This document shows positions 12,650 through 44,729 of a stretch of DNA of 64,000 nt, piece by piece (position 1 is the stretch's first letter; the number at the start of each line of letters is the position of its first letter). The stretch lies in contig SUXM01000002.1 of the NCBI GenBank assembly GCA_015060925.1, positions 62,001 to 126,000 of the forward strand, written 5' to 3'. The notes under the pieces were generated by a model that did not search any database, was not told where the DNA came from, and saw nothing but the letters and a program-made list of their open reading frames with translations. This stretch comes from Parabacteroides distasonis (GTDB taxonomy: Bacteria > Bacteroidota > Bacteroidia > Bacteroidales > Tannerellaceae). The position numbers and the translations under genes were made by a program.

Positions 12650-14062
12650 TTACTCCTTCACATGAATTTTGTGGGAAGCTACTTTGCCGTTGCAGTCGAT
12701 GGAAAGGATGCAGAGTCCTTTAGTTTTTAGTGGGATTTCATTATCGCCTGACACTATCGGAGCCGTTTGAAGCAATGCTCCCGATAAATCATACACCCGA
12801 CAAATACCCTTTTCCGGGGATTTCAAACGAAGTAGAGACCCCACCACTTGAAGCGGAGTTTCCAATGATTGAGCTACTGACTCTATATCGGTGGAAGATT
12901 GCCCAACCGGAATGCAACCAGTAACCATACATATATAATAATCTTCATCAATATATTCACCCCATCCTTCATCTTTTGTAGGTTTTTTCACCTTTCTCAT
13001 TTCATCCAACGTATAATAACCATTTGATACTCCTCCCCAACCATAATTTAAATGAAAAGCATTTATTCCATCAAAACCATCGACATTTACTGCATGTGAT
13101 AAAAAACCTAAACCATAAATAATTGGACGCCCTTGTTTTAATTCAGCTAAAATTATATTATACCATTCCTCTTCTAGAAAACTATAAGTATTATCTTTAT
13201 TTGAAAAAAGTTGTTCAGAATGAATTCTGTATACATAAAATCTTAGCGAATTATATTTGTATGAAAAATTATGAATAAGAGCTGCTTTAACATCATCCAG
13301 AGATGCACTTGAAGATTCCGTCCCATACTTCATCCGAACGGCTACTCCACAATGATAAAGCAATCGTGCCACCTCGTCTTTATTATCTGCTCCAGACATG
13401 ATTTTTTCCCAATCATAAGGCTTCTCATTCTTTAATGTGATATAAATAGCATTCTCTGCATTAGATTTCATCCAATAAACAGCATTTCCTTTAGGACCTT
13501 TAGGATATTGATAAACACTCATCATTTGTGCCATTGCTACTGCTACACAACCAACCACTGTTTTTTTCCCTTTATTATCTATCGGACAATATTTGGCATA
13601 AACCCCAGTTTGATTCCAATTCACTTTAATCAAAGGTGCTATTGCTTCACTTTTAGTATCTGAACGTAAAGACTTAACTTCCCAATTTAAATCTCGTTTT
13701 AAACCTTTTAATGATTTTATCACTTGAATCTCTTTGGTTCTCTTTTCTAACCAAAAAAGAGCAGCTTCCGGAGCTTCTTCCTTTTGAAACAGACCTTTAT
13801 CCGAATAACCGATTAGTGGTTGTACCCGATCGTCTGCCGAAATCAATGCCCAACCTTCAGGTTCAAACTGTACAATATAGTAACAGGTGTCCTTTTCTTG
13901 CAGTATTGGAGTGATAGTGTATGCTTTATCAGAAAAGTCTTCTGTCGATATTCGCATACAAGCCATTACCGCTTGACGATGAACCTCCTCTCGAGTTACC
14001 GGTTCAGCAAATAGACAGCAACATCCTAAACTAAATAATAAGGATAGAACTAATCGTCTCAT
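12650..14062 (-). CDS. C10 family (streptopain-like) cysteine protease, copy C
   Basis: A 470-residue secreted protease. It has a signal peptide (MRRLVLSLLFSLGCCCLFAE), an N-terminal Spi_C10-type prodomain (residues ~22-125, with YYIVQFEPEGWALISADDRV) and a C10 catalytic domain with Cys172 in VGCVAVAMAQ and His323 in LSHAVNVDGFDG, followed by HLNYGWGG. The last ~80 residues (CRVYDLSGALLQ ... LKTKGLCILSID ... HKIHVKE) look like a T9SS type A sorting domain. It is the third of three tandem copies and is nearly identical to copy B in the prodomain and tail. It diverges mostly at residues ~195-325. Confidence 0.9.
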   Translation of the reverse strand: MRRLVLSLLFSLGCCCLFAEPVTREEVHRQAVMACMRISTEDFSDKAYTITPILQEKDTCYYIVQFEPEGWALISADDRVQPLIGYSDKGLFQKEEAPEAALFWLEKRTKEIQVIKSLKGLKRDLNWEVKSLRSDTKSEAIAPLIKVNWNQTGVYAKYCPIDNKGKKTVVGCVAVAMAQMMSVYQYPKGPKGNAVYWMKSNAENAIYITLKNEKPYDWEKIMSGADNKDEVARLLYHCGVAVRMKYGTESSSASLDDVKAALIHNFSYKYNSLRFYVYRIHSEQLFSNKDNTYSFLEEEWYNIILAELKQGRPIIYGLGFLSHAVNVDGFDGINAFHLNYGWGGVSNGYYTLDEMRKVKKPTKDEGWGEYIDEDYYICMVTGCIPVGQSSTDIESVAQSLETPLQVVGSLLRLKSPEKGICRVYDLSGALLQTAPIVSGDNEIPLKTKGLCILSIDCNGKVASHKIHVKE

Positions 14063-14097
14063 ATCTAAAAGTTTTTAGGGTTCTACAAAAAAACTAT
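14063..14097 (-). repeat. Duplicated 35-base spacer between C10 protease copies
   Basis: This spacer and 15505-15539 share the same length and differ only in the few bases next to the downstream gene's start codon. The repeated unit therefore includes gene plus spacer, which supports tandem duplication. Confidence 0.85.
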
Positions 14098-15504
14098 TTA
14101 CTCCTTCACATGGATTTTGTGAGAGGCGACTTTACCATTGCAATCGACAGAGAGGATACAAAGTCCTTTGGTCTTTAAAGGGATTTCATTATCTCCTGCC
14201 ATTACCGGAGCAGTTTGAAGCAATGCTCCAGATAAGTCATACACCCGACAAATACCCTTTTCCGGGGATTTCAAACGAAGTAGAGAACCCACCACTTGAA
14301 GCGGAGTTTCCAATGATTGAGCTACTGACTCTATATCGGTGGAAGATTGTTCAACCGGAATAAAACCAGCAACCATTTTTATATAATATTCTTCGTCTCT
14401 GTATTTTTGCAGACTAGGTTCCCAATATCTTTCTCCCTTTCTCATTTTATCTAAAGTATAATAACCATTTGAGGCTCCTCCCCAACCATAATTCAGATGA
14501 AAAGCATTTACCCCATCAAAACCATCTACATTTACTGCATGAAAAAGAAGTGTTCCTAAATTATGAATAATCGGACGCCCTTGCTTTAGTTCATTCAAAA
14601 TTATACAACTCCATTCCTCATCTGGAATAGTATAAGTAATAACTGAATTAGGGCTAAGCTGTTCTGATTTTCGCATTTCATAATACTTAATAGAATCATG
14701 CCTATAAGAGAAATTATGAATAAGTCCCTCTCTTATATCACTCATATTTGCATTAGAAACATCTGCTCCATACTTCATCCGAACGGCTACTCCACAATGA
14801 TAAAGTAATCGTGCTACCTCATCTTTATTATCTGCTCCAGACATAATCTTCTCCCAATCATAAGGCTTTTCATTCTTTAATGTAATCCAAGTTGTCAATG
14901 TTTCACCCGGTTTCCAATAAACAGCATTGCCCTTAGGAGCTTTAGGATATTGATAAACACTCATCATTTGTGCCATCGCTACTGCTGCACAACCAACCAA
15001 AGTTCTTTTTCCTTTTTTATCTATCGGACAATATTTGGCATAAGCCCCATTTTGATTCCAATTTACTTTGATCAATGGTTTTATTATATTCTCTTTATTA
15101 TCCGAGCGTAAAGAATGAGCTTCCCAATTTAAATCCCGTTTTAAACCCTTTAATGATTTTATCACTTGAATCTCTTTGGCTCTCTTTTCTAACCAAAAAA
15201 GAGCAGCATCCGGAGCTTCTTCCTTTTGAAACAGACCTTTATCCGAATACCCAATCAGCGGTTGTACCCGATCATCTGCCGATATCAATGCCCAACCCTC
15301 CGGTTCAAACTGTACTACATAGTAACAGGTGTCCTTTTCTTGTAGTATTGGAGTGATAGTGTATGCTTTATCAGAAAAGTCTTCTGTCGATATTCGCATA
15401 CAAGCCATTACAGCTTGACGATGAACCTCCTCTCTACTTACCGATTCAGCAAATAGACAGCAACATCCTAAACTAAATAATAAGGATAAAGCTAATCGTC
15501 TCAT
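14098..15504 (-). CDS. C10 family (streptopain-like) cysteine protease, copy B
   Basis: A 468-residue paralogue with the same architecture as copy C: signal peptide, Spi_C10 prodomain, catalytic domain with Cys172 (GCAAVAMAQ) and His322 (LFHAVNVDGFDG), NYGWGG loop and a sorting-domain-like tail. The first ~190 and last ~80 residues are almost the same as copy C. The 250-320 segment, likely near the substrate cleft, differs strongly. It is 35 bases from each neighbour, so the three form one operon. The family is secreted as a zymogen and degrades host or food proteins. Confidence 0.9.
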   Translation of the reverse strand: MRRLALSLLFSLGCCCLFAESVSREEVHRQAVMACMRISTEDFSDKAYTITPILQEKDTCYYVVQFEPEGWALISADDRVQPLIGYSDKGLFQKEEAPDAALFWLEKRAKEIQVIKSLKGLKRDLNWEAHSLRSDNKENIIKPLIKVNWNQNGAYAKYCPIDKKGKRTLVGCAAVAMAQMMSVYQYPKAPKGNAVYWKPGETLTTWITLKNEKPYDWEKIMSGADNKDEVARLLYHCGVAVRMKYGADVSNANMSDIREGLIHNFSYRHDSIKYYEMRKSEQLSPNSVITYTIPDEEWSCIILNELKQGRPIIHNLGTLLFHAVNVDGFDGVNAFHLNYGWGGASNGYYTLDKMRKGERYWEPSLQKYRDEEYYIKMVAGFIPVEQSSTDIESVAQSLETPLQVVGSLLRLKSPEKGICRVYDLSGALLQTAPVMAGDNEIPLKTKGLCILSVDCNGKVASHKIHVKE

Positions 15505-15539
15505 AACAAAAAGTTTTTAGGGTTCTACAAAAAAACTAT
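15505..15539 (-). repeat. Second copy of the duplicated 35-base C10 spacer
   Basis: Same length as 14063-14097 and identical over about 31 bases, including the run AGTTTTTTTGTAGAACCC read on the minus strand. Confidence 0.85.
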
Positions 15540-16886
15540 TTACTCCTTCACATGAATTTTGTGGGAGGCGACTTTGCCGTTGCAATCGACAGAGAGGATA
15601 CAAAGTCCTTTGGTTTTTAAAGGAATTTCATTATCCCCTGCCATCACCGAAGCAGTTTGAAGCAATGTTCCCGATAAATCATACACCCGACAAATACCCT
15701 TTTCCGGGGATTTCAAACGAAGTAGAGAACCCACCACTTGAAGCGGAGTTTCCAAAGATTGGGCTACCGACTCAATATCAGTAGAAGAACGAGTATCGGG
15801 TACCAAACCGGTTGTCATAGAATCAAAACTTCGTACATTAGATTTTCCTAATGCATAATCCAATGTATAATAGACATTGGAAACACCTCCCCATCCCCAA
15901 TTGAAATGAAAAGCATTTACGCCATCATAACCATCTATATTTATTAAGTGACCTTTAGATGGCCCATTACCTATACCGTAAAAAATAGGACGTCCCCGTT
16001 TCAATTCTGGTAAAATTTTATTACTTAACCATTCATTAGTTTGAATGAAGTTATTTGCAAAATAAAATTTAAGACTATCCGGTATATATGAGAATGTACG
16101 AGCTAATGCTTCAATCATATCTTTTTCATTGGAACTTGAACTACTTTCTCTATATTTCATTCTAACAGAAACTCCACAATGATAAAGTAAACGAGCTGCC
16201 TCATCATTATTATCTGATCCTGAGATTATCTTATCCCAATCATAAGCAGGATCTTTATCAAAATCTACAATTATGCTTCCAACATAATCTACACTATACC
16301 CCATATACCCTTTTGGACGAGCCGGATGTCTAAAGACTGTCATCGCCTGCCCCATAGCTACAGCTACACAGCCCACTAATGTTTTCTTTCCGTTTCTGGT
16401 TACCGGACAATATTTGTTATAAGGACTCCTTTGATCCCAACCCACTTTAATCAACCAAGGGATTTTTTCCGTTTGATTATCGGAACGTAAAAGATTTGTT
16501 TGCCATCCAACATGACGTTTGGCATGATGAAGCATACTTTTAACCTCTTTAATTTCAACTGCACGATTCTTCAACCACAAAGACATCGGTTCCGGAGCCT
16601 CTTCCAATTGAAATCGTTCAGTAGTCGAATAACTAATTAACGGTTGCACCCGATCGTCTGCTGAGATTAACGCATACCCTGCCGGCTCAAACTGTACCAC
16701 ATAGTAACAGGTGTCTCCTTCCTCTATCATCGGAGTAATGGTATAAGCCTTGGTAGAAAAATCCTCTTCCGCTATACGCATACAGGCGGCTACCGCTTGA
16801 CGATGAACCTCCTCTCTACTTACCGGTTCTGCAAATAGACAGAAACATCCTAAACCGAATAATAAGGATAAAGCTAATCGTCTCAT
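15540..16886 (-). CDS. C10 family (streptopain-like) cysteine protease, copy A
   Basis: A 448-residue first copy in the array. Signal peptide, Spi_C10 prodomain, catalytic Cys173 (VGCVAVAMGQ) and His313 (KGHLINIDGYDG) with NWGWGG are all intact, so it should be active after maturation. The catalytic domain is clearly more diverged from copies B and C than they are from each other. The C-terminal ~80 residues from SSTDIESVAQSLETPLQVVG onward are almost identical in all three, suggesting gene conversion or strong constraint on the tail. It starts 5 bases after the stop of the upstream lipoprotein gene. Confidence 0.9.
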   Translation of the reverse strand: MRRLALSLLFGLGCFCLFAEPVSREEVHRQAVAACMRIAEEDFSTKAYTITPMIEEGDTCYYVVQFEPAGYALISADDRVQPLISYSTTERFQLEEAPEPMSLWLKNRAVEIKEVKSMLHHAKRHVGWQTNLLRSDNQTEKIPWLIKVGWDQRSPYNKYCPVTRNGKKTLVGCVAVAMGQAMTVFRHPARPKGYMGYSVDYVGSIIVDFDKDPAYDWDKIISGSDNNDEAARLLYHCGVSVRMKYRESSSSSNEKDMIEALARTFSYIPDSLKFYFANNFIQTNEWLSNKILPELKRGRPIFYGIGNGPSKGHLINIDGYDGVNAFHFNWGWGGVSNVYYTLDYALGKSNVRSFDSMTTGLVPDTRSSTDIESVAQSLETPLQVVGSLLRLKSPEKGICRVYDLSGTLLQTASVMAGDNEIPLKTKGLCILSVDCNGKVASHKIHVKE

Positions 16887-16891
16887 AACTT

Positions 16892-17341
16892 TTAATTTTT
16901 GGATTGAATAATCATTAAATTATCAATAGGATATCCCATTGTTGCTATATCTATTTCTATGGTTCTTTCTACTTCTGTATGATTAGCTTCTATAGAAACA
17001 TGTAATTTAGATCCTTCCTGTTTCAACAAAAAGAAATCACCTTTTAACTCTTTTTTATACATATGAATCTCTAAGCCATCCATAAAAGTATTATGGATAA
17101 TGGTTTCTTGACCGTTTACGGAAACCGTTACTTTTTTAATTCCCCAAAAAATATCTTTAACAATTCCTGACTTATCTACTAAAGTAATGGTTTGAGTATA
17201 TTCGCCAGAAGGTATTACTTGTACAGGTTCTCCACAATCGTAATAAACCATTTCATGTATTCCTGTCATTTCATTGTCTTTATCACATGAAAGGAAAAGT
17301 ATAAAGACAATGAATAAAAATAATAACTGTTTTGTTTTCAT
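16892..17341 (-). CDS. Small lipoprotein, candidate C10 protease inhibitor
   Basis: A 149-residue protein with a lipoprotein signal (MKTKQLLFLFIVFILFLSC). The acidic residues right after the lipid Cys (CDKDNE) resemble the surface-export signals of Bacteroidetes lipoproteins. The rest is predicted beta-rich with no family I recognise. It lies 5 bases before the C10 protease array in the same transcript. C10 proteases of Streptococcus and Bacteroides fragilis are co-encoded with small beta-barrel inhibitors, so an inhibitor role is inferred from position and size only. Confidence 0.5.
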   Translation of the reverse strand: MKTKQLLFLFIVFILFLSCDKDNEMTGIHEMVYYDCGEPVQVIPSGEYTQTITLVDKSGIVKDIFWGIKKVTVSVNGQETIIHNTFMDGLEIHMYKKELKGDFFLLKQEGSKLHVSIEANHTEVERTIEIDIATMGYPIDNLMIIQSKN

Positions 17342-17516
17342 GATTTATTTGTATTTGAGATTTTGGGATAAAGATAAGGGTGGTCATAGGTAAAAAAAAC
17401 GTAATGCTTTAAATTTTTATTTAGTCATACAACATATTTATATACAAAAGATTACGAAAATAAAATTTACATAAAATATATTTACAATGCAAATAAGGTG
17501 CTAAAAACCGTAATAG

Positions 17517-19514: not shown

Positions 19515-19590
19515 CCAAACAAATATAAGAATAATTATATTCAAATCAGATACCCCTGTCAAATTGTTTTAAGGCTATTAGGAGGGGTTG

Positions 19591-19656
19591 AAAATTACCT
19601 CGGACTTAAGTTGGGATTACCTCCGATGTATTTTCAATTACATCCGAGGTAATTTT
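19591..19656. repeat. Overlapping inverted repeats with alternative pairings
   Basis: A perfect 14-base inverted repeat (19591-19604 with 19643-19656, core ATTACCTCGGA) encloses a second one (19616-19630 with 19639-19653, one mismatch, core ATTACCTCCGATGTA). The right-hand arm is shared, so only one hairpin can form at a time. Its end also overlaps the next terminator hairpin by five bases. Confidence 0.7.
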
Positions 19657-19703
19657 ATCTCCCTGCCCAGAGAAAAAAATTTTCATAGGCAGGAAGATAA
19701 AAT
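19652..19703 (-). terminator. Long hairpin after the GH92 gene
   Basis: Sixteen-base arms (19652-19667 and 19688-19703, one mismatch) with an inner GAAAA/TTTTC pairing. It sits four bases from the GH92 stop and is closely related to the hairpin at 58223-58266. Confidence 0.7.
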
Positions 19704-19706
19704 TTC

Positions 19707-22096: not shown

Positions 22097-25000
22097 TTAT
22101 TTATTCCAAACTCTTGGGGCAGGAACTCCCGGAAGAGCCTTACGGTTCTTCAACTCTTTCATGACCTCTTCGATGGCACGGTTCAACTGTTGGTCTTCTC
22201 CGTTCCACTCTTTAATCGGGTCATTATCTATCAGAATATCAGGATCAACCCCATGATTTTCAATAATCCATTCACCTTTCTTCGGATCATAACTGGTAAA
22301 GAAGGGGACACGAATGTCTGTCCCATCCATATAAGGCAGAGATCCACTGATACCGACAATGCCACCCCATGTATGTGTACCGATCAACTTACCTAATCCC
22401 AATGCTCGGAATCCCCATGGGAACAGGTCGCCATCAGATGCTGAATATTTATTGATCAAACAAACCTTTGGTCCAACCTGTACAGCATCAGGAACCGTTC
22501 CGATACGAGAAGATCCCCGGCGCATGGTCAAACGGTAAGGTTCACGTGAGAGACGTTCCAAAATCATTGGCGAAACATTTCCTCCACCGTTTGCACGGTC
22601 ATCAATGATCAATCCCTCTTTATCCAACTGCGGATAGAAATAACGAGCAAATTCATTCAAACCATCCGGCCCCATGTCCGGGATATAGATATACCCGATT
22701 TTACCATTCGATGCCTGATCGACCTTTTTGATATTGTCCTGTATCCAATTATAATGATACAACGAATACTCCTCATCCAACGGGGTAATCACAATCTTCC
22801 GAGCACCAGCCAACTGCGGTTTACTATTCAATGAGATTTCAGTCAAGACATTGGCTTTTCCCACTAATAAAGCATACATATCCTTGACACTATTCGTAGG
22901 AACTCCATCTATTGCCACAATATATTCACCCACTTTTGCTTCTATACCCGGCTCAGTCAGAGGTGAACGTAACTTTTTACTCCAAGATGCACCCGGTAAA
23001 ATCTTCTCCAAACGGAAGAAACCACTTTTATCACGAGAGATCTCAGCTCCCAACAAACCGGTAGGGATACGCTCCGGAGTTTCCATTTCTCCCGGATTCA
23101 CATAGGCATGGCCACAATTCAATTCGCCAATCATTTCACCAATGATGTAATTCAAATCCAAACGGGTTTTCACATGAGGCAGTAAAGCTGCATATTTCGC
23201 TTTCATCTTCTTCCAATCGACCCCATGCATGTTTTCCAAATAGAAGCCATCACGAAAAGCACGCCAAGCCTCATCGAAAATCTGTGCCCACTCTTTCGAA
23301 TAGTCAACCGTAATCTGCATATTAGAAAGATCAACCGATTCATCCAAATGTACCTTTCCGGCAGGGATATCCTTTACATAAAGCGTTCTTCCTTTGGAGA
23401 ATATCGCTTTCTTACTACCCGGAGCAACCGTCATCATAGCGCCATTTGCAACCACATCCTCCTTCTGTTTATTTAAATCATACGCATAAGTGCCACCCCG
23501 TTTCCAATAATAGACCTTCTTGCCGTCAGAGTAGATATTTCTAAAGAAAGAGGGTTCAACAGGAAGTTTGACGATACGTTCTGTTATACCTTCCGGATCA
23601 AAGGATACAGAAACAGACGCTTTTACCTCTTTCTGTTCCGGTTTGCCCACTTTACCTTCTTCTTTCTTTGTTGTTACTTCTGCATCTTTACCCATAAAAG
23701 GAGAAGGGGTCTCTTTTGACAGCAAAGCCAAATAAAGCCCGTTCATATTGTTATATACATGATTCCATTCCAACGAACCATAAGTCGGATTAAAGTCGCG
23801 CGCAGAGGTAAAAATCAAATACTTGCCATCTGTACTAAAGACAGGAGAAGAGGAATCATACCATTTGTCCGTTACCGGATACTCTCTCTTTTCATCCAAG
23901 TTATACACATAAACGATATTATGATCATTCTCTGCAGCACGAGTATAGGTCAACCATTTACTATCCGGAGAAAAAGCGACTCCGCGTGGTTCACCTATCG
24001 GGTCTTGCCACAAAGTCATTACCTGCTTAGAATCTACATCTATCAGATTCAAGCGGTTCTTTCGATCTGTATAAATAATCTTCTTGGCATCCGGGCTCCA
24101 TACCAAGCTACGAATGTAGGTCGTATTACGTTTGGTCAATTGAACCGGCTCGCCTCCTGTTGCCTCTTGCAAATACAGCTCTGTCTCACCTGTCTGGTCA
24201 GAGATATAAGCGATATACTTGCCATCCGGCGACCATTTCGCACCCCGTTCATGTGCACCGGGAGTACGAGTGATATTTTTAGTCACTCCTTTTTCTACCG
24301 GCACATTGAAAACTTCTCCACGAGCCGTTACGGCCAACCGTTTACCGTCAGGCGAAAGACTGGAAGCTGTCACATAATTCGCTCCGTTCTTTATCTCCTT
24401 ACGGGCATAAATATTATCTGAAGCCAAAGTGATATTGATCTTTTCCGGTCTCTTGGCTGTTGCATCCATTTTATAAATGTATCCACCATTCTCAAAAACA
24501 ATCATATTTCCATTTGCACTTGGGAACTTGATATCATACTCCGTAAAGTTTGTCACCTTATTAATCTCTTTCGTCCGTGTATTATAGACAAATAGATTCA
24601 TCGTCCGGTCACGATCTGACAAGAAAAAGATCTCATCCCCAATCCACATCGGGATAATATCTTGTGCTTCATGATTCGTGATATTTTCCACCTGTTGCTT
24701 CTCCGGATTATAAATCCATATATCGTCAGCCATACCGCCTTTATAGTATTTCCATGTACGAAACTCACGCATCACCCGATTATAGGCCAACTGCTTTCCG
24801 TCCGGTGAATAACTACAGAACCCTCCTTCCGGAAGAGGAATAACCTCTGACAAACCTCCCTCTTTATCTACAGTATAAAGTTTACCGGTAAAACCGTCAC
24901 TGATACGATTACGATAAATAATCCGCTTCCCGTCTGGAGTCCAGTTCATCACCATATTATTCGGCCCCATCCGGTCACCCAAGTCATCTCGGGCATTTGT

Positions 25001-25324
25001 TGCTGTATAGGTCACTCGCAAAGGTTCACCACCAGTAGCCGGAACAGTATAAACTTCAGTATTCCCATCATACTGTCCGGTAAAAGCGATAACCTTCCCA
25101 TCCGGAGAAAAACGAGGAAACATCTCATAACCAACATGCGAAGTCAACCGCTGTGCTTCACCTCCCTTTATTGAAACCTTATAAAGATCTCCTGCATACG
25201 AGAATACAATGTCATCTCCATTTGTTGCCGGGAACCGCAACAAACGAGCTTCCGTATTCGCTGCATCTATCACAAAAGAAAACCCTGTCAAGAACAGGAA
25301 TGAAAGAACTAATGCTTTTTTCAT
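22097..25324 (-). CDS. Tricorn-like S41 protease with TolB-type propellers, copy 1
   Basis: A 1075-residue exported protein with a signal peptide (MKKALVLSFLFLTGFSFVIDA). WD40/TolB-like propeller repeats (SPDGK, WSPDGKYIAYIS) cover roughly residues 30-540. Then come a charged linker, the Tricorn core with its His in MIGELNCGHAYVNP, a PDZ-like part, and the S41 domain with DDRANGGGNV and YSASDGDLFPWG. The Ser-Asp-Gly-Asp of archaeal Tricorn is kept, so it should be an active peptidase trimming oligopeptides in the periplasm. A paralogue of identical length is encoded divergently next to it. Confidence 0.9.
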   Translation of the reverse strand: MKKALVLSFLFLTGFSFVIDAANTEARLLRFPATNGDDIVFSYAGDLYKVSIKGGEAQRLTSHVGYEMFPRFSPDGKVIAFTGQYDGNTEVYTVPATGGEPLRVTYTATNARDDLGDRMGPNNMVMNWTPDGKRIIYRNRISDGFTGKLYTVDKEGGLSEVIPLPEGGFCSYSPDGKQLAYNRVMREFRTWKYYKGGMADDIWIYNPEKQQVENITNHEAQDIIPMWIGDEIFFLSDRDRTMNLFVYNTRTKEINKVTNFTEYDIKFPSANGNMIVFENGGYIYKMDATAKRPEKINITLASDNIYARKEIKNGANYVTASSLSPDGKRLAVTARGEVFNVPVEKGVTKNITRTPGAHERGAKWSPDGKYIAYISDQTGETELYLQEATGGEPVQLTKRNTTYIRSLVWSPDAKKIIYTDRKNRLNLIDVDSKQVMTLWQDPIGEPRGVAFSPDSKWLTYTRAAENDHNIVYVYNLDEKREYPVTDKWYDSSSPVFSTDGKYLIFTSARDFNPTYGSLEWNHVYNNMNGLYLALLSKETPSPFMGKDAEVTTKKEEGKVGKPEQKEVKASVSVSFDPEGITERIVKLPVEPSFFRNIYSDGKKVYYWKRGGTYAYDLNKQKEDVVANGAMMTVAPGSKKAIFSKGRTLYVKDIPAGKVHLDESVDLSNMQITVDYSKEWAQIFDEAWRAFRDGFYLENMHGVDWKKMKAKYAALLPHVKTRLDLNYIIGEMIGELNCGHAYVNPGEMETPERIPTGLLGAEISRDKSGFFRLEKILPGASWSKKLRSPLTEPGIEAKVGEYIVAIDGVPTNSVKDMYALLVGKANVLTEISLNSKPQLAGARKIVITPLDEEYSLYHYNWIQDNIKKVDQASNGKIGYIYIPDMGPDGLNEFARYFYPQLDKEGLIIDDRANGGGNVSPMILERLSREPYRLTMRRGSSRIGTVPDAVQVGPKVCLINKYSASDGDLFPWGFRALGLGKLIGTHTWGGIVGISGSLPYMDGTDIRVPFFTSYDPKKGEWIIENHGVDPDILIDNDPIKEWNGEDQQLNRAIEEVMKELKNRKALPGVPAPRVWNK

Positions 25325-25578: not shown

Positions 25579-28500
25579 ATGAAAATTCTACTCATTTTAA
25601 TTACAGCATGGTTCTCTGCAATCCATTTATTTGCGGAAACCCCTTTATGGATGCGCTATCCGGCCATCTCACCTAACGGAGAATGGATCGCTTTTACCTA
25701 CAAAGGAGATATTTATACTGTCTCTTCGGCAGGAGGAAAGGCCAACCAATTAACGACTCATCCTTCACACGACACCCGCCCGGTTTGGTCTCCTGACGGA
25801 AACAAACTTGTCTTTGCATCCGACAGAAACGGGAACTTCGACCTTTTTGTAATCCAGAAAGAGGGAGGTTTACCTAAACAATTAACAACCCATTCGGCAA
25901 ATGAATATCCAGAGACATTCAGTGACAACAAACATATACTCTATTCGGCATCTATCCAACAAGATGCTAAAGACAGCCAATTCCCCTCTTCCCAATTCCC
26001 ACAAATTTACCAGGTCAGTGTGGAAGGAGGCCGTCCTCTCCTTTACTCTTCTTTAGCCATGCAAAGTCTGGCATTCAATAAAGGAAGAGACAAGTTGCTT
26101 TACCAAGACATGAAAGGATATGAGGATTATTGGCGTAAACACCACCAGTCTGCAATCACGCGCGATATTTGGTTATGTACGACTACTCCCCCACGCACTT
26201 ATCAAAAGATTACCTCCTTTCATGGAGAAGACCGTAACCCGATTTGGGCAATAGATGGTTCCGGATTCTATTATCTAAGCGAAGAGAAAGGGAGTTTCAA
26301 TATCTTTAAGAAATCATTTACAGAAGAGAACAGTCGGCAAATCACGAACCATACCACCCATCCTGTCCGTTTCTTGACATCGGACAATAACGGGACTTTA
26401 TGTTATAGCTATAACGGAGAGATTTATACCCTCAAAGAGAAGGGGAACTCCCAGAAAGTTCGTGTCCAAATTATTTCAGATCAGATAGAGAACGAGCTGA
26501 TACACCAACTAAAGACCAATGGGGCTACCGACATTGCTGTCTCTCCAAATGAGAAAGAGGTCGCATTTATTGTCCGAGGAGATGTCTATGTTACCTCTGT
26601 CGAATATGAAACAACCAAACAAATCACCAACACCCCTCAACAAGAACGTGACATCGACTTTAGCCCGGACGGCCGTTCGCTTGTTTACTCCTCCGAGAGA
26701 GAAACGACATGGGGCATTTACCAAAGCAGCCTTGTCCGCAAAAAGGATACCTATTTCACCTACGCCCAAGAGATCAAAGAAGAGGTTTTAGTGGCAAGCG
26801 GCCAAACCTCTTTTTACCCCACATACTCTCCGGATGGGAAAGAGGTTGCCTTCCTCGAAAACCGTACAACCCTACGTGTCATCAATCTAAAGAACAAGAA
26901 GGTTCGGACTGTTTTGGATGGGAAATATAACTATTCCTATTCGGATGGAGACCAACAATATCAATGGTCACCGGATAGCAAATGGTTCCTTGCCAAATAC
27001 ATTGCCGTTGGAGGCTGGAACAATACGGATATCGTGTTGGTTAAAGCCGATGGAAGTGGCGAAATGACCAACTTAACCGAAAGCGGTTATTCCGATGGAA
27101 ATGCCAAATGGGTATTAGATGGTAAAGCGATGATCTGGGCTTCTGATCGTGCCGGCTATCGTAGCCACGGAAGTTGGGGTGCGGAAGATGATATTTACAT
27201 CATGTTCTTTGACGCGGAGGCGTATGATAAGTTCCGCTTCTCTAAAGAAGAACAAGCGTTGTTTGACGAAGAAGAGAAGGAGAAGAATAAAGAGAAGAAA
27301 AAAGAGGGAAAAGAGGATAAGAAAGAAAAAGAAGAAGACAAACCGGTTACTCCTCTTCAATTTGATTTGGAGAACCGTAAAGACCGTGTGATACGTCTGA
27401 CAGTCAACTCCTCTTTCTTAGGGGATGCCGTACTTACTTCCAAAGGAGACAAACTGTATTATTGTGCCTCATTTGAAGGAGGTTATGATTTATGGGAACA
27501 TAACTTAAAGGAGAAAACAACCAAACTGTTAATCAAAGGTGTGGGAGGCGGTTCTATGCACCCGGATAAGAAGGGAGAAAATATCTACTTGGTTTCAAGG
27601 GGACAACTGAAGAAGATTGAGATAAAAGACAGCAAAACCAAATCCATTGCTTTCAAAGCCGACTTCAACTACCAACCGGCCAAAGAGCGTGCATACATCT
27701 TCAACCATGCTTGGCGTCAGGTAGCAGATAAGTTTTACGACCCGAAAATCCATGGTATTGACTGGGATGGATACAAGAAAGCGTATGAGAAGTTCCTCCC
27801 TCATATCAACAACAATTACGATTTCTCTGAAATGCTGGGCGAAATGTTAGGCGAATTAAACGGTTCCCATACCGGAGCACGTTATCGTCCTGCCTCTACT
27901 ACCCCGGCAACAGCCTGTTTAGGGGCTTTCTTTGACAACAGTTACAACGGCGATGGCCTGAAGATCGAAGAAATCATCGCCAAAGGACCGCTTACCCAAG
28001 CCAAATCAAAAATAACGGCAGGCTGTATCATTGAGGAAATCAACGGTTCAAAAATCAAAGCTAATGAAGATTATTACCCGCTGCTAAAAGGGAAAGCGGA
28101 TAAGAAAGTCTTGCTTTCCGTCTATAACCCGATGACAAAAGAGCGTTTTGAAGAACAGGTCAAACCAATCACGTATAGTACTTTATCCTCTCTCTTATAC
28201 AAACGTTGGATAGAGCAAAAGCGTCAAATGGTGGATAAACTTTCTAACGGAAAGATAGGTTACGTGCATGTCAAAGCGATGGATAGCCCCAGTTTCCGGG
28301 AGGTTTATTCGGAATTGTTAGGTCGTTGCCGTAACAAAGAGGCGGTGATAGTGGATACCCGGCATAATGGCGGTGGTTGGTTACATGATGATTTGGCAAC
28401 TCTTCTGAGCGGCAAACAATATGCCAAATTTACCCCACGCGGACAGTTCATCGGAAACGAGCCGTACAACAAATGGATAAAACCATCATGCGTGTTAGTC

Positions 28501-28806
28501 TGCGAAGATAACTATTCCAACGCCCATGGTTTCCCGTGGTTATATAAGACACTGGGAATAGGGAAACTGATCGGTACACCGGTTCCCGGTACCATGACCG
28601 CCGTTTGGTGGGAAACACAAATTGATCCGACCATCGTCTTCGGTATTCCGCAAGTGGGTATGGAAGATATGCAAGGTCGTTATTTGGAAAATATGGAACT
28701 TCAACCGGATATTGAAATCTACAACTCTCCCGAATCACAACTTAAAGGAGAAGACCAACAACTTGAACAAGCCGTAAAAGAGATGTTGAAAACGATTCAA
28801 AAATAA
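25579..28806 (+). CDS. Tricorn-like S41 protease paralogue, copy 2
   Basis: A 1075-residue protein with a signal peptide (MKILLILITAWFSAIHLFA), N-terminal TolB-like propeller blades (SPNGEWIAFTYKGDIYTV, WSPDGNKLVFAS), and a Lys/Glu-rich linker near residues 560-590. Next is a core with His in MLGELNGSHTGAR and an S41 domain with DTRHNGGGWL. At the nucleophile loop it reads DNYSNAHGFPW where copy 1 has YSASDGDLFPW, losing the Ser-Asp-Gly-Asp signature. Activity or specificity may therefore differ. It is divergent from copy 1 and ends in its own terminator. Confidence 0.87.
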   Translation: MKILLILITAWFSAIHLFAETPLWMRYPAISPNGEWIAFTYKGDIYTVSSAGGKANQLTTHPSHDTRPVWSPDGNKLVFASDRNGNFDLFVIQKEGGLPKQLTTHSANEYPETFSDNKHILYSASIQQDAKDSQFPSSQFPQIYQVSVEGGRPLLYSSLAMQSLAFNKGRDKLLYQDMKGYEDYWRKHHQSAITRDIWLCTTTPPRTYQKITSFHGEDRNPIWAIDGSGFYYLSEEKGSFNIFKKSFTEENSRQITNHTTHPVRFLTSDNNGTLCYSYNGEIYTLKEKGNSQKVRVQIISDQIENELIHQLKTNGATDIAVSPNEKEVAFIVRGDVYVTSVEYETTKQITNTPQQERDIDFSPDGRSLVYSSERETTWGIYQSSLVRKKDTYFTYAQEIKEEVLVASGQTSFYPTYSPDGKEVAFLENRTTLRVINLKNKKVRTVLDGKYNYSYSDGDQQYQWSPDSKWFLAKYIAVGGWNNTDIVLVKADGSGEMTNLTESGYSDGNAKWVLDGKAMIWASDRAGYRSHGSWGAEDDIYIMFFDAEAYDKFRFSKEEQALFDEEEKEKNKEKKKEGKEDKKEKEEDKPVTPLQFDLENRKDRVIRLTVNSSFLGDAVLTSKGDKLYYCASFEGGYDLWEHNLKEKTTKLLIKGVGGGSMHPDKKGENIYLVSRGQLKKIEIKDSKTKSIAFKADFNYQPAKERAYIFNHAWRQVADKFYDPKIHGIDWDGYKKAYEKFLPHINNNYDFSEMLGEMLGELNGSHTGARYRPASTTPATACLGAFFDNSYNGDGLKIEEIIAKGPLTQAKSKITAGCIIEEINGSKIKANEDYYPLLKGKADKKVLLSVYNPMTKERFEEQVKPITYSTLSSLLYKRWIEQKRQMVDKLSNGKIGYVHVKAMDSPSFREVYSELLGRCRNKEAVIVDTRHNGGGWLHDDLATLLSGKQYAKFTPRGQFIGNEPYNKWIKPSCVLVCEDNYSNAHGFPWLYKTLGIGKLIGTPVPGTMTAVWWETQIDPTIVFGIPQVGMEDMQGRYLENMELQPDIEIYNSPESQLKGEDQQLEQAVKEMLKTIQK

Positions 28807-36720: not shown

Positions 36721-36743
36721 CTTTTTACTTCTTTAATTCGGTG

Positions 36744-36751: not shown

Positions 36752-36866
36752 CATTAATTTACAATTTTGACACTATTATTCACAAAATCTTCCTAGTATT
36801 TTCATAAAAAAGCGTACTTTATTTGTTTTTATTTTCATTTTCATATATTTAGAGCTAAACTTTCAC

Positions 36867-36874
36867 TACCTTTG
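36867..36874 (+). promoter_or_regulatory. -7 promoter box of pnp
   Basis: TACCTTTG fits TAnnTTTG and lies 36 bases before the pnp ATG. Confidence 0.6.
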
Positions 36875-36910
36875 CACCAATTTTACAGATAGAAAAATAA
36901 GAAAAAGATT

Positions 36911-39118: not shown

Positions 39119-39131
39119 TTAGAGTCAATAT

Positions 39132-39173
39132 AAAAAAAGGAGAAAGAACTCAATGAGAACTTTCTCCTTTTTT
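39132..39173. terminator. Bidirectional terminator between pnp and fumarase
   Basis: AAAAAAGGAGAAAG (39133-39146) pairs with CTTTCTCCTTTTTT (39160-39173), with A/T runs on both sides. Confidence 0.85.
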
Positions 39174-39188
39174 ATTTCTTAATAATGA

Positions 39189-40832: not shown

Positions 40833-40887
40833 AGTGTATATTACATTTATTAATTATAACTGTTTACATTCTTTTCAAACGGTTTGG

Positions 40888-40895
40888 CAAACTTA
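40888..40895 (-). promoter_or_regulatory. -7 promoter box of the fumarase gene
   Basis: Minus-strand TAAGTTTG fits TAnnTTTG, 55 bases upstream of the ATG. Confidence 0.5.
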
Positions 40896-40898
40896 ACG

Positions 40899-40937
40899 AA
40901 AAATACCCGAATGATTTATACATCCAGGTATTTTTTT
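40899..40937 (-). terminator. Terminator of the PepSY-like gene pair
   Basis: AAAAATACC (40899-40907) pairs with GGTATTTTT. On the minus strand the hairpin ends in a T-run. It partly neighbours the fumarase promoter. Confidence 0.65.
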
Positions 40938-40994
40938 AACTATAATAATTAGAGATATATCCAAAAACTACAACATCCAAACTTCCTCCTAATC

Positions 40995-41480
40995 TTAAAC
41001 CGGAAGCAGATCCATATAACCTTTATCCCTATTACCAGTCTTCACATCTATCAAAATTCCATTCAACGAATAATACAGATCCAACTCTTTATTTCCTTGC
41101 TCCACCTCCAATACATAAACAGTATCCAAAGTATTCCGTTCTATCATATCCACATCATCCACCCGCCACGTTGCATATTGACTTTGACTAAAAGAGCCTT
41201 GTATTACATCTGGAATCAATATGAATGGTACATCTATCTCTGTCATATACCAAACCCCGTTATTATCAAACCAAGCCTCCATATCCACCTGGTTCTGTTC
41301 AAAGTCTACAACAACATAATTATCAAGTATTTTCCACTCTACATCCTTTGCTAATGGATATTTATCCTCAAAAACCGTCAATGTAGCCGTACTTACAAAA
41401 TCCGGAACTCTGTTATCATCATTGCAACTTGGTAAAATAAACAAGCATAAAAGAAGAAATACTAACAAATTTGTTTTCAT
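40995..41480 (-). CDS. PepSY-like (DUF2874-type) lipoprotein
   Basis: A 161-residue lipoprotein (MKTNLLVFLLLCLFILPSC) with acidic residues after the lipid Cys (CNDDN), suggesting surface display. It holds repeated PepSY-like units: a helix-type segment (TLTVFEDKYPLAKDVEWKIL) followed by strands (VVVDFEQNQVDMEAWFDNNGVWYMTEID). Such proteins occur in pairs in Bacteroidales and may bind or inhibit extracellular enzymes; the function is not proven. The 41480 start gives the better signal peptide. It follows a related gene by 36 bases. Confidence 0.75.
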   Translation of the reverse strand: MKTNLLVFLLLCLFILPSCNDDNRVPDFVSTATLTVFEDKYPLAKDVEWKILDNYVVVDFEQNQVDMEAWFDNNGVWYMTEIDVPFILIPDVIQGSFSQSQYATWRVDDVDMIERNTLDTVYVLEVEQGNKELDLYYSLNGILIDVKTGNRDKGYMDLLPV

Positions 41481-41516
41481 AATATTTATCCTCATCTTAA
41501 TTACAAGAATGAATGT

Positions 41517-41954
41517 TTAATCATCTATATCTATCAAACGGATATTCTTGTCAAATTCCAATGACAAACCTTTTGACAACTCAACTTCATATCCCCGATT
41601 CTCCTTCTCTATTTGTACCACTTTCTGATCAGGATAATGCGTTTGCACATGATGTTTAATGGCTTTCGGTATAATTTCGGAAGGGACAACAGAGTTTCTA
41701 CAATCTACATTCGTCCAAATACCATTCTTATCAAACTCAATCCGACTACGGTTTGTAAAGATTACCTCATATTTCTTGTCAAAGAAATCATTTTCCCTTT
41801 TTACCAAAGTAACCTTTTCCTGAGGGAAAAAGATCTTCACAAAAATTTGCGCCTTTTCAGGCAACTGGTCAAAACGAATAGGACGGCCGTCATCTGCATA
41901 TAGCCCTACACCTACCATGAACAAACAAACAAATAATACCCAAAACTTTCTCAT
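41517..41954 (-). CDS. PepSY-like secreted protein
   Basis: A 145-residue protein with a signal peptide (MRKFWVLFVCLFMVGVGLYA). Two PepSY-like repeats follow: LPEKAQIFVKIFFPQEKVTLVKRE with YEVIFTNRSRIEFDKNGIWTNVD, then IPKAIKHHVQTHYPDQKVVQIEKE with YEVELSKGLSLEFDKNIRLIDID. Unlike its neighbour it has no lipid Cys, so it is probably periplasmic. The two genes likely form one transcript ending at 40899-40937. Confidence 0.8.
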   Translation of the reverse strand: MRKFWVLFVCLFMVGVGLYADDGRPIRFDQLPEKAQIFVKIFFPQEKVTLVKRENDFFDKKYEVIFTNRSRIEFDKNGIWTNVDCRNSVVPSEIIPKAIKHHVQTHYPDQKVVQIEKENRGYEVELSKGLSLEFDKNIRLIDIDD

Positions 41955-42073
41955 TATAACCTTCTTTTAATTTGACAATATCTTTTTTATTTACGTAATC
42001 TATGATAACGCAACATAGATATGAATTTAAAAAAGTAAGTCCAATAATTGTTTATTATTCCACCCTTCTTTTT

Positions 42074-42104
42074 ATTGATTATTTCAGCATTTTACATAAA
42101 TTTG
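42074..42104 (+). promoter_or_regulatory. Promoter of the phosphoesterase-protease operon
   Basis: ATTG (42074-42077) and TAAATTTG (42097-42104), 19 bases apart, form a -33/-7 pair. This rules out the in-frame ATG at 42048 as the start. Confidence 0.6.
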
Positions 42105-42134
42105 TATTACCGAATTAACATATCATACAAAATT

Positions 42135-43079
42135 ATGAACAGACGATTATTTTTAGGAGGATTGGTAGCTTTAAGTTGCCAAGGGAGATTATGGAAAACA
42201 CATGCTTCCTCTCTTTCTCGCCAGTCGGAGAAATATAATAAAAAAATAGGATTTGATGAGAACCTGATTATATTCATATCTGATACACATATCCAGCCAG
42301 AAGGTTACACGATCGAATGGTTCGATAAAATAGCTAAAGAGATTTTAGCAATGCGTCCTCTACCACGTAACATTATAAATTTAGGAGACCTGGCTCATCT
42401 TTATGGCAAAGAGGAAGATTACCGGGTCGCTAAAGAATTGTTCGCTCCTTTAGAAGAGGCTGGAATCAGAGTCACACATGCAATGGGGAATCATGACCGA
42501 AGAGATTATTTTACTAAAGTTTTTCCAGAAAAAGCAGCTTTAACCTCTTGTCCAGACAGGATTGTTTCTATTGTAGAAACACCCCATGCCGACGTAATCG
42601 TATTGGACTCATTGCAACAAAGTGAAGATGAGAATAAATGGATTACCCCTGGAAATATTGATGAAGCACAACGCGAATGGCTGAAACAGACCCTACAGCA
42701 ATACAGTAAACCTGTTTTCATCGTAGCCCACCATCCACTAAATGAGGTAAAACTGGGTAACATTATTTTTAAAAGTCCAACTTGTTGCGGATATATCCAT
42801 GGGCATGATCATCGTTGGCGTCCCGGTTGGGATCAAAAAGACTGGAAAACACACGAGGTATTGCGTACCCTTTGTTTGCCTTCAACAGGTTATTGGGGGG
42901 ATATTGGTTATGCATGTATGAAACTGGAAGAAAGACAAGCAACTGTCATGCTCGAACAACGGGACTACTTCTTCCCTAAACCCTTACAGGATGGAGAAGA
43001 AAAGCCTTTGCAATGGAAACTAATAGAAGAAGACAACAAAGGATTACAATGTCGTTTTTCTTATATAAGATCAAAATAA
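42135..43079 (+). CDS. Metallophosphoesterase (calcineurin-like)
   Basis: A 314-residue phosphoesterase with all family metal motifs: SDTHIQPEG (D-x-H), NLGDLAHLYG, GNHDRRD, VAHHPLN and HGHDHRW. The N-terminus MNRRLFLGGLVAL has a twin-arginine look and suggests export. Substrate unknown; it could be a nucleotidase or other phosphoesterase. It is three bases before a Lys-C-like protease gene, with which it must be cotranscribed. Confidence 0.85.
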   Translation: MNRRLFLGGLVALSCQGRLWKTHASSLSRQSEKYNKKIGFDENLIIFISDTHIQPEGYTIEWFDKIAKEILAMRPLPRNIINLGDLAHLYGKEEDYRVAKELFAPLEEAGIRVTHAMGNHDRRDYFTKVFPEKAALTSCPDRIVSIVETPHADVIVLDSLQQSEDENKWITPGNIDEAQREWLKQTLQQYSKPVFIVAHHPLNEVKLGNIIFKSPTCCGYIHGHDHRWRPGWDQKDWKTHEVLRTLCLPSTGYWGDIGYACMKLEERQATVMLEQRDYFFPKPLQDGEEKPLQWKLIEEDNKGLQCRFSYIRSK

Positions 43080-43082
43080 ACT

Positions 43083-44729
43083 ATGCTTAAACTTATCCTT
43101 ATAGGTATAGGTTGTCTGTTTACCTGTTTGATAGGCCATGCGCAGATCAGTATCGGTGGACAACCACTACCTTATATTATGACAAAAAGCCTATCAAAAG
43201 AGTTATTTATCCAAATGCCTCCGTTCAACTTAGAAGAACAATTACAGATAGATGCTTTGGAATCAACTGATTTGCGTAACGGTTATCGTTTTGCCTACAA
43301 ATTCATGGGGAATTACACACCGGATAATTCCGGAATCCGATTTACACTACCAGATGGGACAAAAGTTTGGAGATTAGGGATTCACTCCCCTAAAGCCTAT
43401 TCTCTAAATGTCTTATTTAGTGAATACCATCTACCAGAAGGAGCACGTCTGTTTCTCTACAATGAAGAACAAACGGAAATACTGGGCGCATTCAGCCATT
43501 TAAATAACTCCAAATTAGGATTATTACCTATCGCCCCTCTTTTAGGAGACAAGATAATCATCGAATACCAAGAACCAGCTAAAGTTTCATTTCCAGGGAA
43601 ATTAACCCTGGGAGAGATCAATCATGGATACCGCCAAATCCGGGTGTCAGAACCACAACCCGATCAATCAAGTTTCTGGTGCATGCCTCCTGTCGCTTGT
43701 TTTCAAGACACCACCACCCGTTACAACGAAATCGAAAGAAGTATTGTCTTGTTAATCATTAATGGGACAACAAGTTGTTCAGGGACATTACTCAATAATA
43801 CAGCTAACGACAAGACACCTTATATTTTAACAGCATCTCACTGCCTTAACGGACAATTTCAAATACAAAATCCAGACTATGAAAAGATTGCAGGCAGTAT
43901 AATTTGTTACTTTAATTATAACAGTCCACAGTGCAACCCTGTTGAACCCGGACATACAGACCAAACATTAGCTTCTGCCCACTTTAGGGCAGCCAACGAA
44001 GCAACAGACATGGCTCTTTTGGAATTATTAAATAAACCTCCAACCGAATATAACGCTTATTATGCTGGATGGAACGCACAAAATAATGGGGATGCCCCTT
44101 ATATATGTATCCACCATCCTAATGGATCACCCAAAAGGATAATAATCACAGAGGGAGAGGTGGAACTCACCTCCTATGTCATTCAAGAAATGGATTTTAC
44201 CCCCAATAGCCATTGGAAAGTAGACCGTTGGTCTATTGGCTGTACAGCCGGAGGCTCGTCTGGGTCTCCGCTTATTGATGCCAACAATCACGTTATAGGA
44301 GGATTAACCGGTGGTGCCTCCTACTGTAATTCTCCTATTAACGATTATTTTTTTTCCATACAAAAAAGTTGGTCAAACCCAACAGATAGTAGCAAACAAC
44401 TCAAGTATTGGCTGGATCCCATCGGGAACGACTTCCCTCCTATTTGTAAAGGATTAGATTCCAATCAAACAACAGCATCATTAAAGAACATGATACTGAC
44501 TGGCACAAACATCTCGGTAGATAATAGCCGACAGGTTCTGCATATCAAGTTGAAAGAATTTATAAATCACGCAACATTTATTTTAGTCTCGTTAGACGGA
44601 AAAATAATCAAACAAAGTACACTTACCAATCAAGAGACCACTGTAATAGTTGGTCCAGTACCATCGGGAGTTTATATTGCACAAATTATTTATAATGACG
44701 AATTTGAGACTAAAAAGGTAATATTTTGA
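43083..44729 (+). CDS. Lys-C-like trypsin-fold serine protease with T9SS sorting tail
   Basis: A 548-residue secreted protease. It has a signal peptide (MLKLILIGIGCLFTCLIGHAQ), an N-terminal beta-rich prodomain of about 200 residues, and a lysyl-endopeptidase-like S1 domain. The triad is seen as His in LTASHCL, Asp in TDMALLEL and Ser in GGSSGSPL. The final ~75 residues (ATFILVSLDGKIIKQSTL ... VPSGVYIAQIIYNDEFETKKVIF, outline only) fit a T9SS type A sorting domain, so export through PorU/PorV is expected. It pairs with the upstream phosphoesterase gene. Confidence 0.87.
   Translation: MLKLILIGIGCLFTCLIGHAQISIGGQPLPYIMTKSLSKELFIQMPPFNLEEQLQIDALESTDLRNGYRFAYKFMGNYTPDNSGIRFTLPDGTKVWRLGIHSPKAYSLNVLFSEYHLPEGARLFLYNEEQTEILGAFSHLNNSKLGLLPIAPLLGDKIIIEYQEPAKVSFPGKLTLGEINHGYRQIRVSEPQPDQSSFWCMPPVACFQDTTTRYNEIERSIVLLIINGTTSCSGTLLNNTANDKTPYILTASHCLNGQFQIQNPDYEKIAGSIICYFNYNSPQCNPVEPGHTDQTLASAHFRAANEATDMALLELLNKPPTEYNAYYAGWNAQNNGDAPYICIHHPNGSPKRIIITEGEVELTSYVIQEMDFTPNSHWKVDRWSIGCTAGGSSGSPLIDANNHVIGGLTGGASYCNSPINDYFFSIQKSWSNPTDSSKQLKYWLDPIGNDFPPICKGLDSNQTTASLKNMILTGTNISVDNSRQVLHIKLKEFINHATFILVSLDGKIIKQSTLTNQETTVIVGPVPSGVYIAQIIYNDEFETKKVIF

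What the first reader, a model, noticed from the sequence alone, without database searches (positions are those of the whole stretch)
12650..44729. Four secreted proteases carry T9SS-like sorting tails in the same window as porU and porV
Seen: three C10 proteases end in CRVYDLSGALLQ...HKIHVKE, and the Lys-C-like protease ends in LVSLDGKIIKQ...GVYIAQI...KKVIF. Both fit the T9SS type A pattern (VYDLSG, G-[IV]-Y, final KK-[IV]-V). PorU with both catalytic residues and the start of PorV lie at 1-3635. Inference: this gut-type Bacteroidales has a working T9SS whose cargo includes a streptopain-like protease battery, a combination best known from oral pathogens using gingipains.
Basis: partly seen in the sequence, partly recalled or inferred. 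Interest (0 to 1): 0.72.

Follow-up and report, generated by a model that had tools for sequence, protein, structure and literature searches.

The report
Gut Parabacteroides proteases with T9SS tails
A bacterium that looks like a gut Parabacteroides carries SpeB-like proteases and one lysine-protease-like enzyme whose tail ends look like export signals for its type IX secretion system; the combination is already known, but the SpeB-like family shares one almost unchanging tail while the cutting parts differ.

Summary
The features are real. PorU (231-3635, catalytic His and Cys kept) and 49 codons of porV (1-148) are there; the genome also has porP-K-L-M-N, sov, porQ, porZ and porE. The Lys-C-like tail passes TIGR04183. 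The three C10 tails do not (12.6, unlisted, 12.1 bits; cut-off 23) and read GLC, not GxY. They are still best read as divergent type A sorting domains: HMMs from 14 other-family CTDs and from 14 same-genus CTDs score them 10.5-11.0 and 16.6-18.4 bits (37 window controls at most 2.5 and 3.3; 1 and 0 of 6000 shuffles as good), and a sister-species relative has GFY. 17 of 21 C10 relatives examined carry a CTD. Unusual: six C10 copies in this genome have tails 90-98% identical over catalytic domains 41-78% identical, opposite to the relatives compared; this suggests purifying selection plus homogenisation of the tail.

The parts
1..148 (-). porV, first 49 codons (gene continues outside the window, C5:60985-62148)
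   Evidence: NF033710 480 bits for the whole gene; start read
231..3635 (-). porU, T9SS sortase, 1134 aa, His in YTGHG (632-636) and Cys in TSTCDF (665-670)
   Evidence: NF033707 1128 bits; aligned to 6ZA2, E 2e-233; positions
12650..14062 (-). C10 protease A, 470 aa: signal peptide (by eye), partial Spi-type propeptide, C10 domain with C172/H323
   Evidence: PF01640 155.7 bits, PF13734 47.6 bits; aligned to interpain A and SpeB
12653..12892 (-). C-terminal tail of A (last 80 residues), divergent type A CTD; STDI at 12884-12895, VYDLSG 12779-12796, KGLC 12710-12721, HKIHVKE 12653-12673
14098..15504 (-). C10 protease B, 468 aa, same architecture; tail 14101-14340
   Evidence: PF01640 152.1 bits
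15540..16886 (-). C10 protease C, 448 aa, same architecture; tail 15543-15782
   Evidence: PF01640 166.9 bits
43083..44729 (+). Lys-C-like trypsin-fold protease, 548 aa, His/Asp/Ser kept, type A CTD at the end (about 44487-44726)
   Evidence: matches lysyl endopeptidase 4nsv E 6e-31 with the three catalytic motifs aligned; TIGR04183 29.6 bits, cut-off 23
11569..12597 (-). Rpn family recombination-promoting nuclease gene, 52 bases from the C10 array; possibly linked to spread of the C10 tail
   Evidence: TIGR01784 80.3 bits; an Rpn gene also lies beside C10 tails at C26 and in G048
16892..17341 (-). 149-aa lipoprotein-like gene 5 bases upstream of C10 gene C; possible dedicated inhibitor, unproven
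   Evidence: sub-threshold BSAP-5i hit only (16.9 bits, cut-off 150); no convincing PDB relative (best E 0.74); gap

Best explanation
The four proteases are cargo of a type IX secretion system whose core genes are all present. Each is made with a Sec signal peptide, enters the periplasm as a zymogen (the C10s with a shortened Spi-type propeptide), and is carried by its C-terminal domain through the Sov translocon, driven by PorL/M on the PorK/N ring. PorV takes the tail to PorU, which cuts it (for the C10s probably at SST|DIES, by likeness to the PT/GI site of P. intermedia) and joins the protease to a surface glycan with PorZ and PorQ. The C10s use a divergent type A tail (GLC in place of GxY) that is shared, almost unchanged, by six copies in this genome (four full, two cut by contig ends) with different catalytic domains. 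Shown here: genes, domains, catalytic residues, homology of the tails, constraint on the tail. Inferred: transport, cleavage site, glycan anchoring, substrates.
For: PorU, PorV, PorP, PorK, PorL, PorM, PorN, Sov, PorQ, PorZ, PorE all above curated cut-offs (sov and porM also 11, 12). Lys-C tail over the TIGR04183 cut-off. C10 tails: on an HMM of 14 CTDs mostly of other families 10.5-11.0 bits, against at most 2.5 for 37 other window C-termini and 1 of 6000 shuffles as good; on an HMM of 14 same-genus CTDs 16.6-18.4 bits for A-C, controls at most 3.3, 0 of 6000 shuffles; hhalign 94.5%, E 8e-8, against at most 2.1% in 40 column-shuffled controls; a relative in G047 with GFY and 28.2 bits. 17 of 21 C10 relatives with a readable end carry a CTD of 10 bits or more. 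Tail dN/dS 0.03-0.12, below the catalytic value in 15 of 15 (non-independent) pairs.
Against: The C10 tails miss the curated TIGR04183 cut-off (12.6, unlisted, 12.1 against 23), are not listed for PF18962, and lack the Tyr of motif D. The training CTDs of both HMMs were themselves found with TIGR04183. The hhalign query has low depth (Neff 1.8) and includes the G047 and G048b tails, the first of which matches well on its own. TIGR04183 also rings in 2 of 14 control genomes, once over the cut-off. Three of 21 C10 relatives have no CTD and one is marginal at 5.2 bits. porT, porW, porX, porY, sigP, porF and porG were not searched for.
Confidence: 0.85

Rival explanations
1. The C10 tails are decayed or repurposed CTDs that no longer work as export signals; the proteases stay in the periplasm or leave by another route, and only the Lys-C-like protease is real cargo.
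For: Tails under the TIGR04183 cut-off; GLC instead of GxY; one further copy decayed and one orphan tail elsewhere in the genome.
Against: Constraint on the tail (dN/dS 0.03-0.12), which decay would not give; a sub-group of short P. intermedia CTDs with GxN instead of GxY is predicted cargo (PMC11969387 section 3.5); 16 RgpB point mutants in earlier work showed no single side chain needed for export (PMC11285876 section 2.1).
Confidence: 0.1
2. The identity of the tails is only the mark of recent duplication, with no special constraint or gene conversion.
For: Three copies are in tandem with 35-base spacers identical at 33 of 35 bases; the tail data do not reject the groupings of the catalytic tree (AU p 0.127 and 0.312).
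Against: Catalytic domains of the same pairs are far apart (A-C 51%, dS 1.36) while tails are 92% with dS 0.44; lower tail dS held in 946 to 1000 of 1000 bootstraps in each of 9 cross-clade pairs. Tail differences are mostly synonymous.
Confidence: 0.1
3. The shared tail is kept alike mainly because it is the homology anchor by which catalytic heads are exchanged between loci, helped by the neighbouring Rpn nuclease; sorting is secondary.
For: Reduced dS in tails; Rpn gene beside C10 tails at window 11569-12597, at C26 with an orphan tail, and in sister genome G048; four contigs end inside C10 copies; the catalytic part weakly rejects the C+F pairing that the tail tree shows (AU p 0.044; tail support only 42/83).
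Against: A pure DNA anchor would not give dN/dS far below 1; the genome has 21 Rpn matches, fragments included, so adjacency may be chance or one duplicated segment; conflict between the trees is not established.
Confidence: 0.15

Closest known systems
T9SS-tailed streptopain of gut S24-7 ('Ca. Homeothermaceae'), PMC4936053
   Same: Gut Bacteroidales, T9SS, streptopain homologue among proteins with the TIGR04183 domain (passage).
   Different: The passage reports presence only; here a multi-copy family with one shared tail that falls under the TIGR04183 cut-off.
P. gingivalis periodontain (PG1427) and PrtT (PG1548)
   Same: C10 proteases listed as T9SS effectors (PMC5445135 passage); PrtT is an 841-aa CTD protein with two catalytic-domain alleles (PMC5266723 passage).
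   Different: Oral pathogen; the window C10s are shorter (448-470 aa). Their CTD sequences were not compared here.
Interpain A of Prevotella intermedia
   Same: Best-scoring solved C10 structure (3bb7, E 9e-25; SpeB close behind).
   Different: Only propeptide and catalytic domain are in that structure; its C-terminus was not compared.
Bacteroides fragilis Bfp1-4 C10 proteases
   Same: C10 family in a gut Bacteroidales, some with adjacent putative inhibitors.
   Different: Predicted lipoprotein signals (PMC2873492 passage) rather than a T9SS tail.
Lysyl endopeptidase (4nsv) and Achromobacter protease I (1arb)
   Same: Trypsin-fold domain with aligned catalytic motifs.
   Different: Window protein adds a long N-terminal region and a T9SS CTD; lysine specificity not tested.
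Paraprevotella clara 00502/00509
   Same: Gut commensal T9SS surface proteins; PorU disruption abolished trypsin degradation (PMC9477747 passages).
   Different: They bind trypsin and promote its autolysis; not C10 proteases.

Membership tests
T9SS type A CTD cargo (Lys-C-like protease) | TIGR04183 over curated cut-off at the very C-terminus | tested here: met
   29.6 bits, residues 494-547 of 548
T9SS type A CTD cargo (Lys-C-like protease) | Motif D GxY and basic motif E | tested here: met
   GVYI 529-532, KKVIF 544-548
T9SS type A CTD cargo (three C10s) | TIGR04183 over curated cut-off | tested here: not met
   12.6, not listed, 12.1 bits against 23
T9SS type A CTD cargo (three C10s) | Motif B with conserved Gly and Tyr | tested here: met
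   VYDLSG in all three; motif definition from PMC11969387
T9SS type A CTD cargo (three C10s) | Motif D GxY | tested here: not met
   GLC in all three; Gly kept, Tyr replaced. Sister-species relative L102 has GFY
T9SS type A CTD cargo (three C10s) | Motif E with a basic residue near the end | tested here: met
   HKIHVKE
T9SS type A CTD cargo (three C10s) | Detectable homology to other CTDs | tested here: met
   two HMMs and hhalign with controls
T9SS type A CTD cargo (all four) | Sec signal peptide | tested here: inconclusive
   N-termini look like signal peptides by eye; no predictor run
T9SS type A CTD cargo (all four) | Ig-like 3+4 beta-sandwich fold | not testable with these tools
T9SS type A CTD cargo (all four) | Tail needed for export and removed by PorU | not testable with these tools
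   needs mutants and proteomics
Type IX secretion system | Core porK, porL, porM, porN, porP, sov, porU, porV | tested here: met
Type IX secretion system | Attachment and accessory porQ, porZ, porE | tested here: met
Type IX secretion system | porT, porW, porX, porY, sigP, porF, porG | not tested
Peptidase C10 | C10 domain with catalytic Cys and His | tested here: met
   PF01640 152-167 bits; C172 and H323 of A invariant in 4 paralogues, aligned to SpeB
PorU sortase | Full-length match with catalytic His and Cys | tested here: met

The most novel reading that the evidence does not exclude
A gut commensal keeps a multi-locus protease family in which one T9SS sorting tail is held nearly constant by gene conversion and purifying selection while the catalytic heads diversify, so that new protease specificities are plugged onto a ready-made export-and-anchor module; the neighbouring Rpn nuclease gene may promote the exchange.
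Probability: 0.35. Interest if true: 0.55.

Novelty: new member of a known kind. Interest (0 to 1): 0.3.

Why it matters
It adds a genomic case for T9SS with surface proteases as a normal feature of Parabacteroides-like bacteria, not only of oral pathogens. The divergent tail shows that the standard HMM cut-off can miss cargo: none of the six C10 copies, nor the C10 on contig C22, is in the TIGR04183 list of this genome. The contrast of a constant tail with variable catalytic domains, opposite to the relatives compared here, gives a system in which to ask how T9SS cargo families diversify.

Tried and rejected
Tried without result: TIGR04131 (type B) finds one unrelated protein in the genome (under the cut-off when scanned alone). 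A scan of genome contigs with the C10 alignment gave one locus only, its peptide patterns being narrow. Structure prediction was never available. The small gene 16892-17341 gave no usable relative. The plasmid search gave only distant C10s (10 records, all under 60% identity). Promoter and terminator scans of the array were uninformative (27 found, shuffles 19.0 sd 4.7; 2 found, shuffles 3.4 sd 2.1). The dN/dS control group L047, L048, L049, L054 failed because my catalytic-motif pattern did not match and was dropped. Of the four control pairs obtained, L038-L044 had saturated dS in the catalytic part, and two of the other three have dS of 1.4 to 2.1, near saturation, so that control is weak.

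Considered and rejected: that the tails are chance resemblance; that T9SS is absent; that the tails are simply decaying. That tail and catalytic trees conflict was tested, with groups chosen after the distance table was seen, and not established.

Dropped or partial rows: the count of C10 relatives with tails uses 21 of the 28 relatives' loci that one search gave (it listed more matches than it gave loci): L037, L046, L055, L057, L058 were cut at the 3' end, L050 has an internal stop, L062 is not a C10. One search gave 29 CTD loci; the HMM used 14 (L065-L078, 13 from other families, one same-genus), that used 14 of the other 15 (L085 left out, being a C10 tail). The 37 control C-termini are mechanical ORFs of 150 aa or more, overlapping ones included. 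Of loci L098-L137 only some were read.
Full report
What is there. The window (contig C5:62001-126000 of a 2.54 Mb, 88% complete genome in 41 contigs) holds porU at 231-3635 and the first 49 codons of porV at 1-148, both on the minus strand. PorU matches NF033707 over its length (1128 bits) and the solved PorU 6ZA2 (E 2e-233), with the GHG histidine and TCDF cysteine in register. Three C10 protease genes lie in tandem at 12650-16886 (minus strand), each with a partial Spi-type propeptide (PF13734) and a C10 domain (PF01640, 152-167 bits). Gene A aligns to interpain A and SpeB, catalytic positions included (the Cys is an Ala in that interpain construct). A Lys-C-like protease with His, Asp and Ser motifs aligned to lysyl endopeptidase lies at 43083-44729.

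Organism. The one named relative found is a Parabacteroides MAG from water-buffalo caecum, 89% identical over the first 122 residues of the C10 protein; I infer a gut Parabacteroides-like bacterium.

Machinery. porP-K-L-M-N form one run of genes on contig C14; sov (2485 aa) is on C34; porV runs into the flank. porZ (754 bits), porQ (414 bits) and porE (988 bits) are also present. porT, porW, porX, porY, sigP, porF and porG were not searched. PorU is present above cut-off in 23 of 24 same-genus genomes besides this one and in 37 of 41 genomes overall, misses being G002, G032, G035 and G039. TIGR04183 matches are in 39 of 41, among them G002 and G039, which lack a PorU match; the same model rings in 2 of 14 control genomes, over its cut-off in 1.

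Are the tails sorting domains? TIGR04183 gives 10 matches in this genome at E<=0.001, 9 of them over the cut-off, including the Lys-C-like protease; PorU's own tail is the one under it. The C10 tails are not among them. Scanned singly, C10 A and C score 12.6 and 12.1 bits and B is not listed, cut-off 23; PF18962 does not list them. I therefore built two HMMs. One is from 14 CTDs, 13 of them from other families of the order: C10 A-C score 10.5-11.0 bits; the best of 37 other C-termini of mechanical ORFs in the window scores 2.5; 1 of 6000 shuffled tails does as well. The second is from 14 CTDs of other proteins in the same genus: C10 A-C score 16.6-18.4 bits and the C13 copy 18.8; controls reach 3.3 and the best of 6000 shuffles 8.9. 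Profile against profile, the tail family (8 tails, sister species included, Neff 1.8) matches the first CTD set with 94.5% probability (E 8e-8); 40 column-shuffled versions reach at most 2.1%. A C10 relative in G047 has a 30%-identical tail with GFY and 28.2 bits, and a G048 relative has GIF (11.6 bits); they bridge GLC to GxY. Both training sets were themselves found with TIGR04183.

Motifs. By the definitions of PMC11969387 (abstract and sections 3.1 and 3.5 read; other passages), the C10 tails keep motif B (VYDLSG), the Gly of motif D and the basic motif E, but not the Tyr of GxY; a sub-group of short P. intermedia CTDs has GxN. SSTDIE is a plausible cleavage site by likeness to PT/GI, which would give a 79-residue CTD, within the 69-82 of the 'long' seed CTDs there. 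PMC11285876 (abstract, sections 2.1 and 2.2 read) cites earlier work in which 16 RgpB point mutations found no indispensable side chain, and itself shows that a mutation at the CTD-domain interface blocks export.

Relatives. Of 21 C10 relatives with readable C-terminal ends, 17 have a CTD of 10 bits or more, one is marginal (L056, 5.2 bits), and three have none (L059-L061). Two of those three (L059, L061) have a lipoprotein-like N-terminus by eye; L060 is unclear. B. fragilis C10s also have predicted lipoprotein signals (PMC2873492, passage). This fits a division between lipid-anchored C10s without a tail and T9SS C10s with one, on small numbers.

The unusual part. The C10 search finds 13 matches in this genome: the three window genes; a fourth full gene on C13 with the same tail; copies cut by contig ends on C11 and C4 (3' parts) and on C14 and C7 (5' parts); a decayed copy on C14 (three matches); an orphan tail on C26; and a different C10 on C22 with its own GIY tail. 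The tail itself is found in 3 of 38 genomes of the genus searched (this one, G048, G047). Among six copies with a readable tail (four full, two 5'-cut), tail identity is 90-98% and catalytic identity 41-78%. In the sister proteins G048b and G047 it is the reverse (catalytic 80%, tail 40%). In three other same-genus C10 pairs the CTD dN/dS (0.28-0.37) exceeds the catalytic (0.12-0.23), but two of them have dS near saturation, a fourth was saturated and one group failed. Tail dN/dS is 0.03-0.12 and lower than the catalytic value (0.27-0.54) in 15 of 15 pairs, which are not independent. Tail dS is also lower than catalytic dS in 9 of 9 cross-clade pairs, with 0 to 54 of 1000 bootstraps against. 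Purifying selection explains the first; the second suggests homogenisation such as gene conversion. In trees, the tail does not reject the catalytic groupings (AU p 0.127 and 0.312), while the catalytic part weakly rejects one pairing seen, with little support, in the tail tree (p 0.044). Gene conversion is thus suggested, not shown.

What is known. A TIGR04183-group streptopain in gut S24-7 genomes with T9SS was reported in 2016 (PMC4936053, passage). P. gingivalis periodontain and PrtT are listed C10 T9SS effectors (PMC5445135, passage), and PrtT has two catalytic alleles (PMC5266723, abstract and passages). Gut Paraprevotella T9SS was tested with a porU mutant (PMC9477747, passages). CTD motifs are noted for Parabacteroides distasonis (PMC4804311, one passage). 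Cockroach hindgut Bacteroidales transcribe streptopain and T9SS genes (PMC10266427, passages). My seven paper searches (only the listed rows seen) showed no description of a C10 family with a shared homogenised T9SS tail; this is a limited search.

Verdict. The shared constant tail is a modest extra.

Noticed in passing
window 11569-12597; L094:1177-2142 (C26); L101:930-1847 (G048): An Rpn recombination-promoting nuclease gene sits beside a C10 tail in three places, once beside an orphan tail. The genome has 21 TIGR01784 matches, fragments included, so chance or one duplicated segment is possible.
   Followed up: partly
G000:C14:11819-12293 and G000:C26:95772-95972: A decayed C10 copy that kept its start and broken tail pieces but lost its middle, and an orphan C10 tail.
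   Followed up: partly
G000 contig ends C4, C7, C11, C14: Four contigs end inside C10 copies, so the family probably broke the assembly and its copy number is uncertain.
   Followed up: no
L096:2-994 (C4): This C10 copy runs 31 residues past the usual tail end before a stop. Short His-tag extensions of PorU and PorZ CTDs are reported as harmless (PMC11285876); the effect of this one is unknown.
   Followed up: no
window 16892-17341: Lipoprotein-like 149-aa gene just upstream of C10 gene C; B. fragilis C10 genes have adjacent putative inhibitor genes, so it may be an inhibitor.
   Followed up: partly
L025:701-2383 and L022:2047-3969: Pfam DUF6383 overlaps the sorting tail of two proteins (E 1e-8 and 0.0096), which suggests DUF6383 is a T9SS CTD variant.
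   Followed up: no
window 22097-25324 (-) and 25579-28806 (+): Two tricorn-like S41 proteases of 1075 aa each, divergently placed.
   Followed up: no
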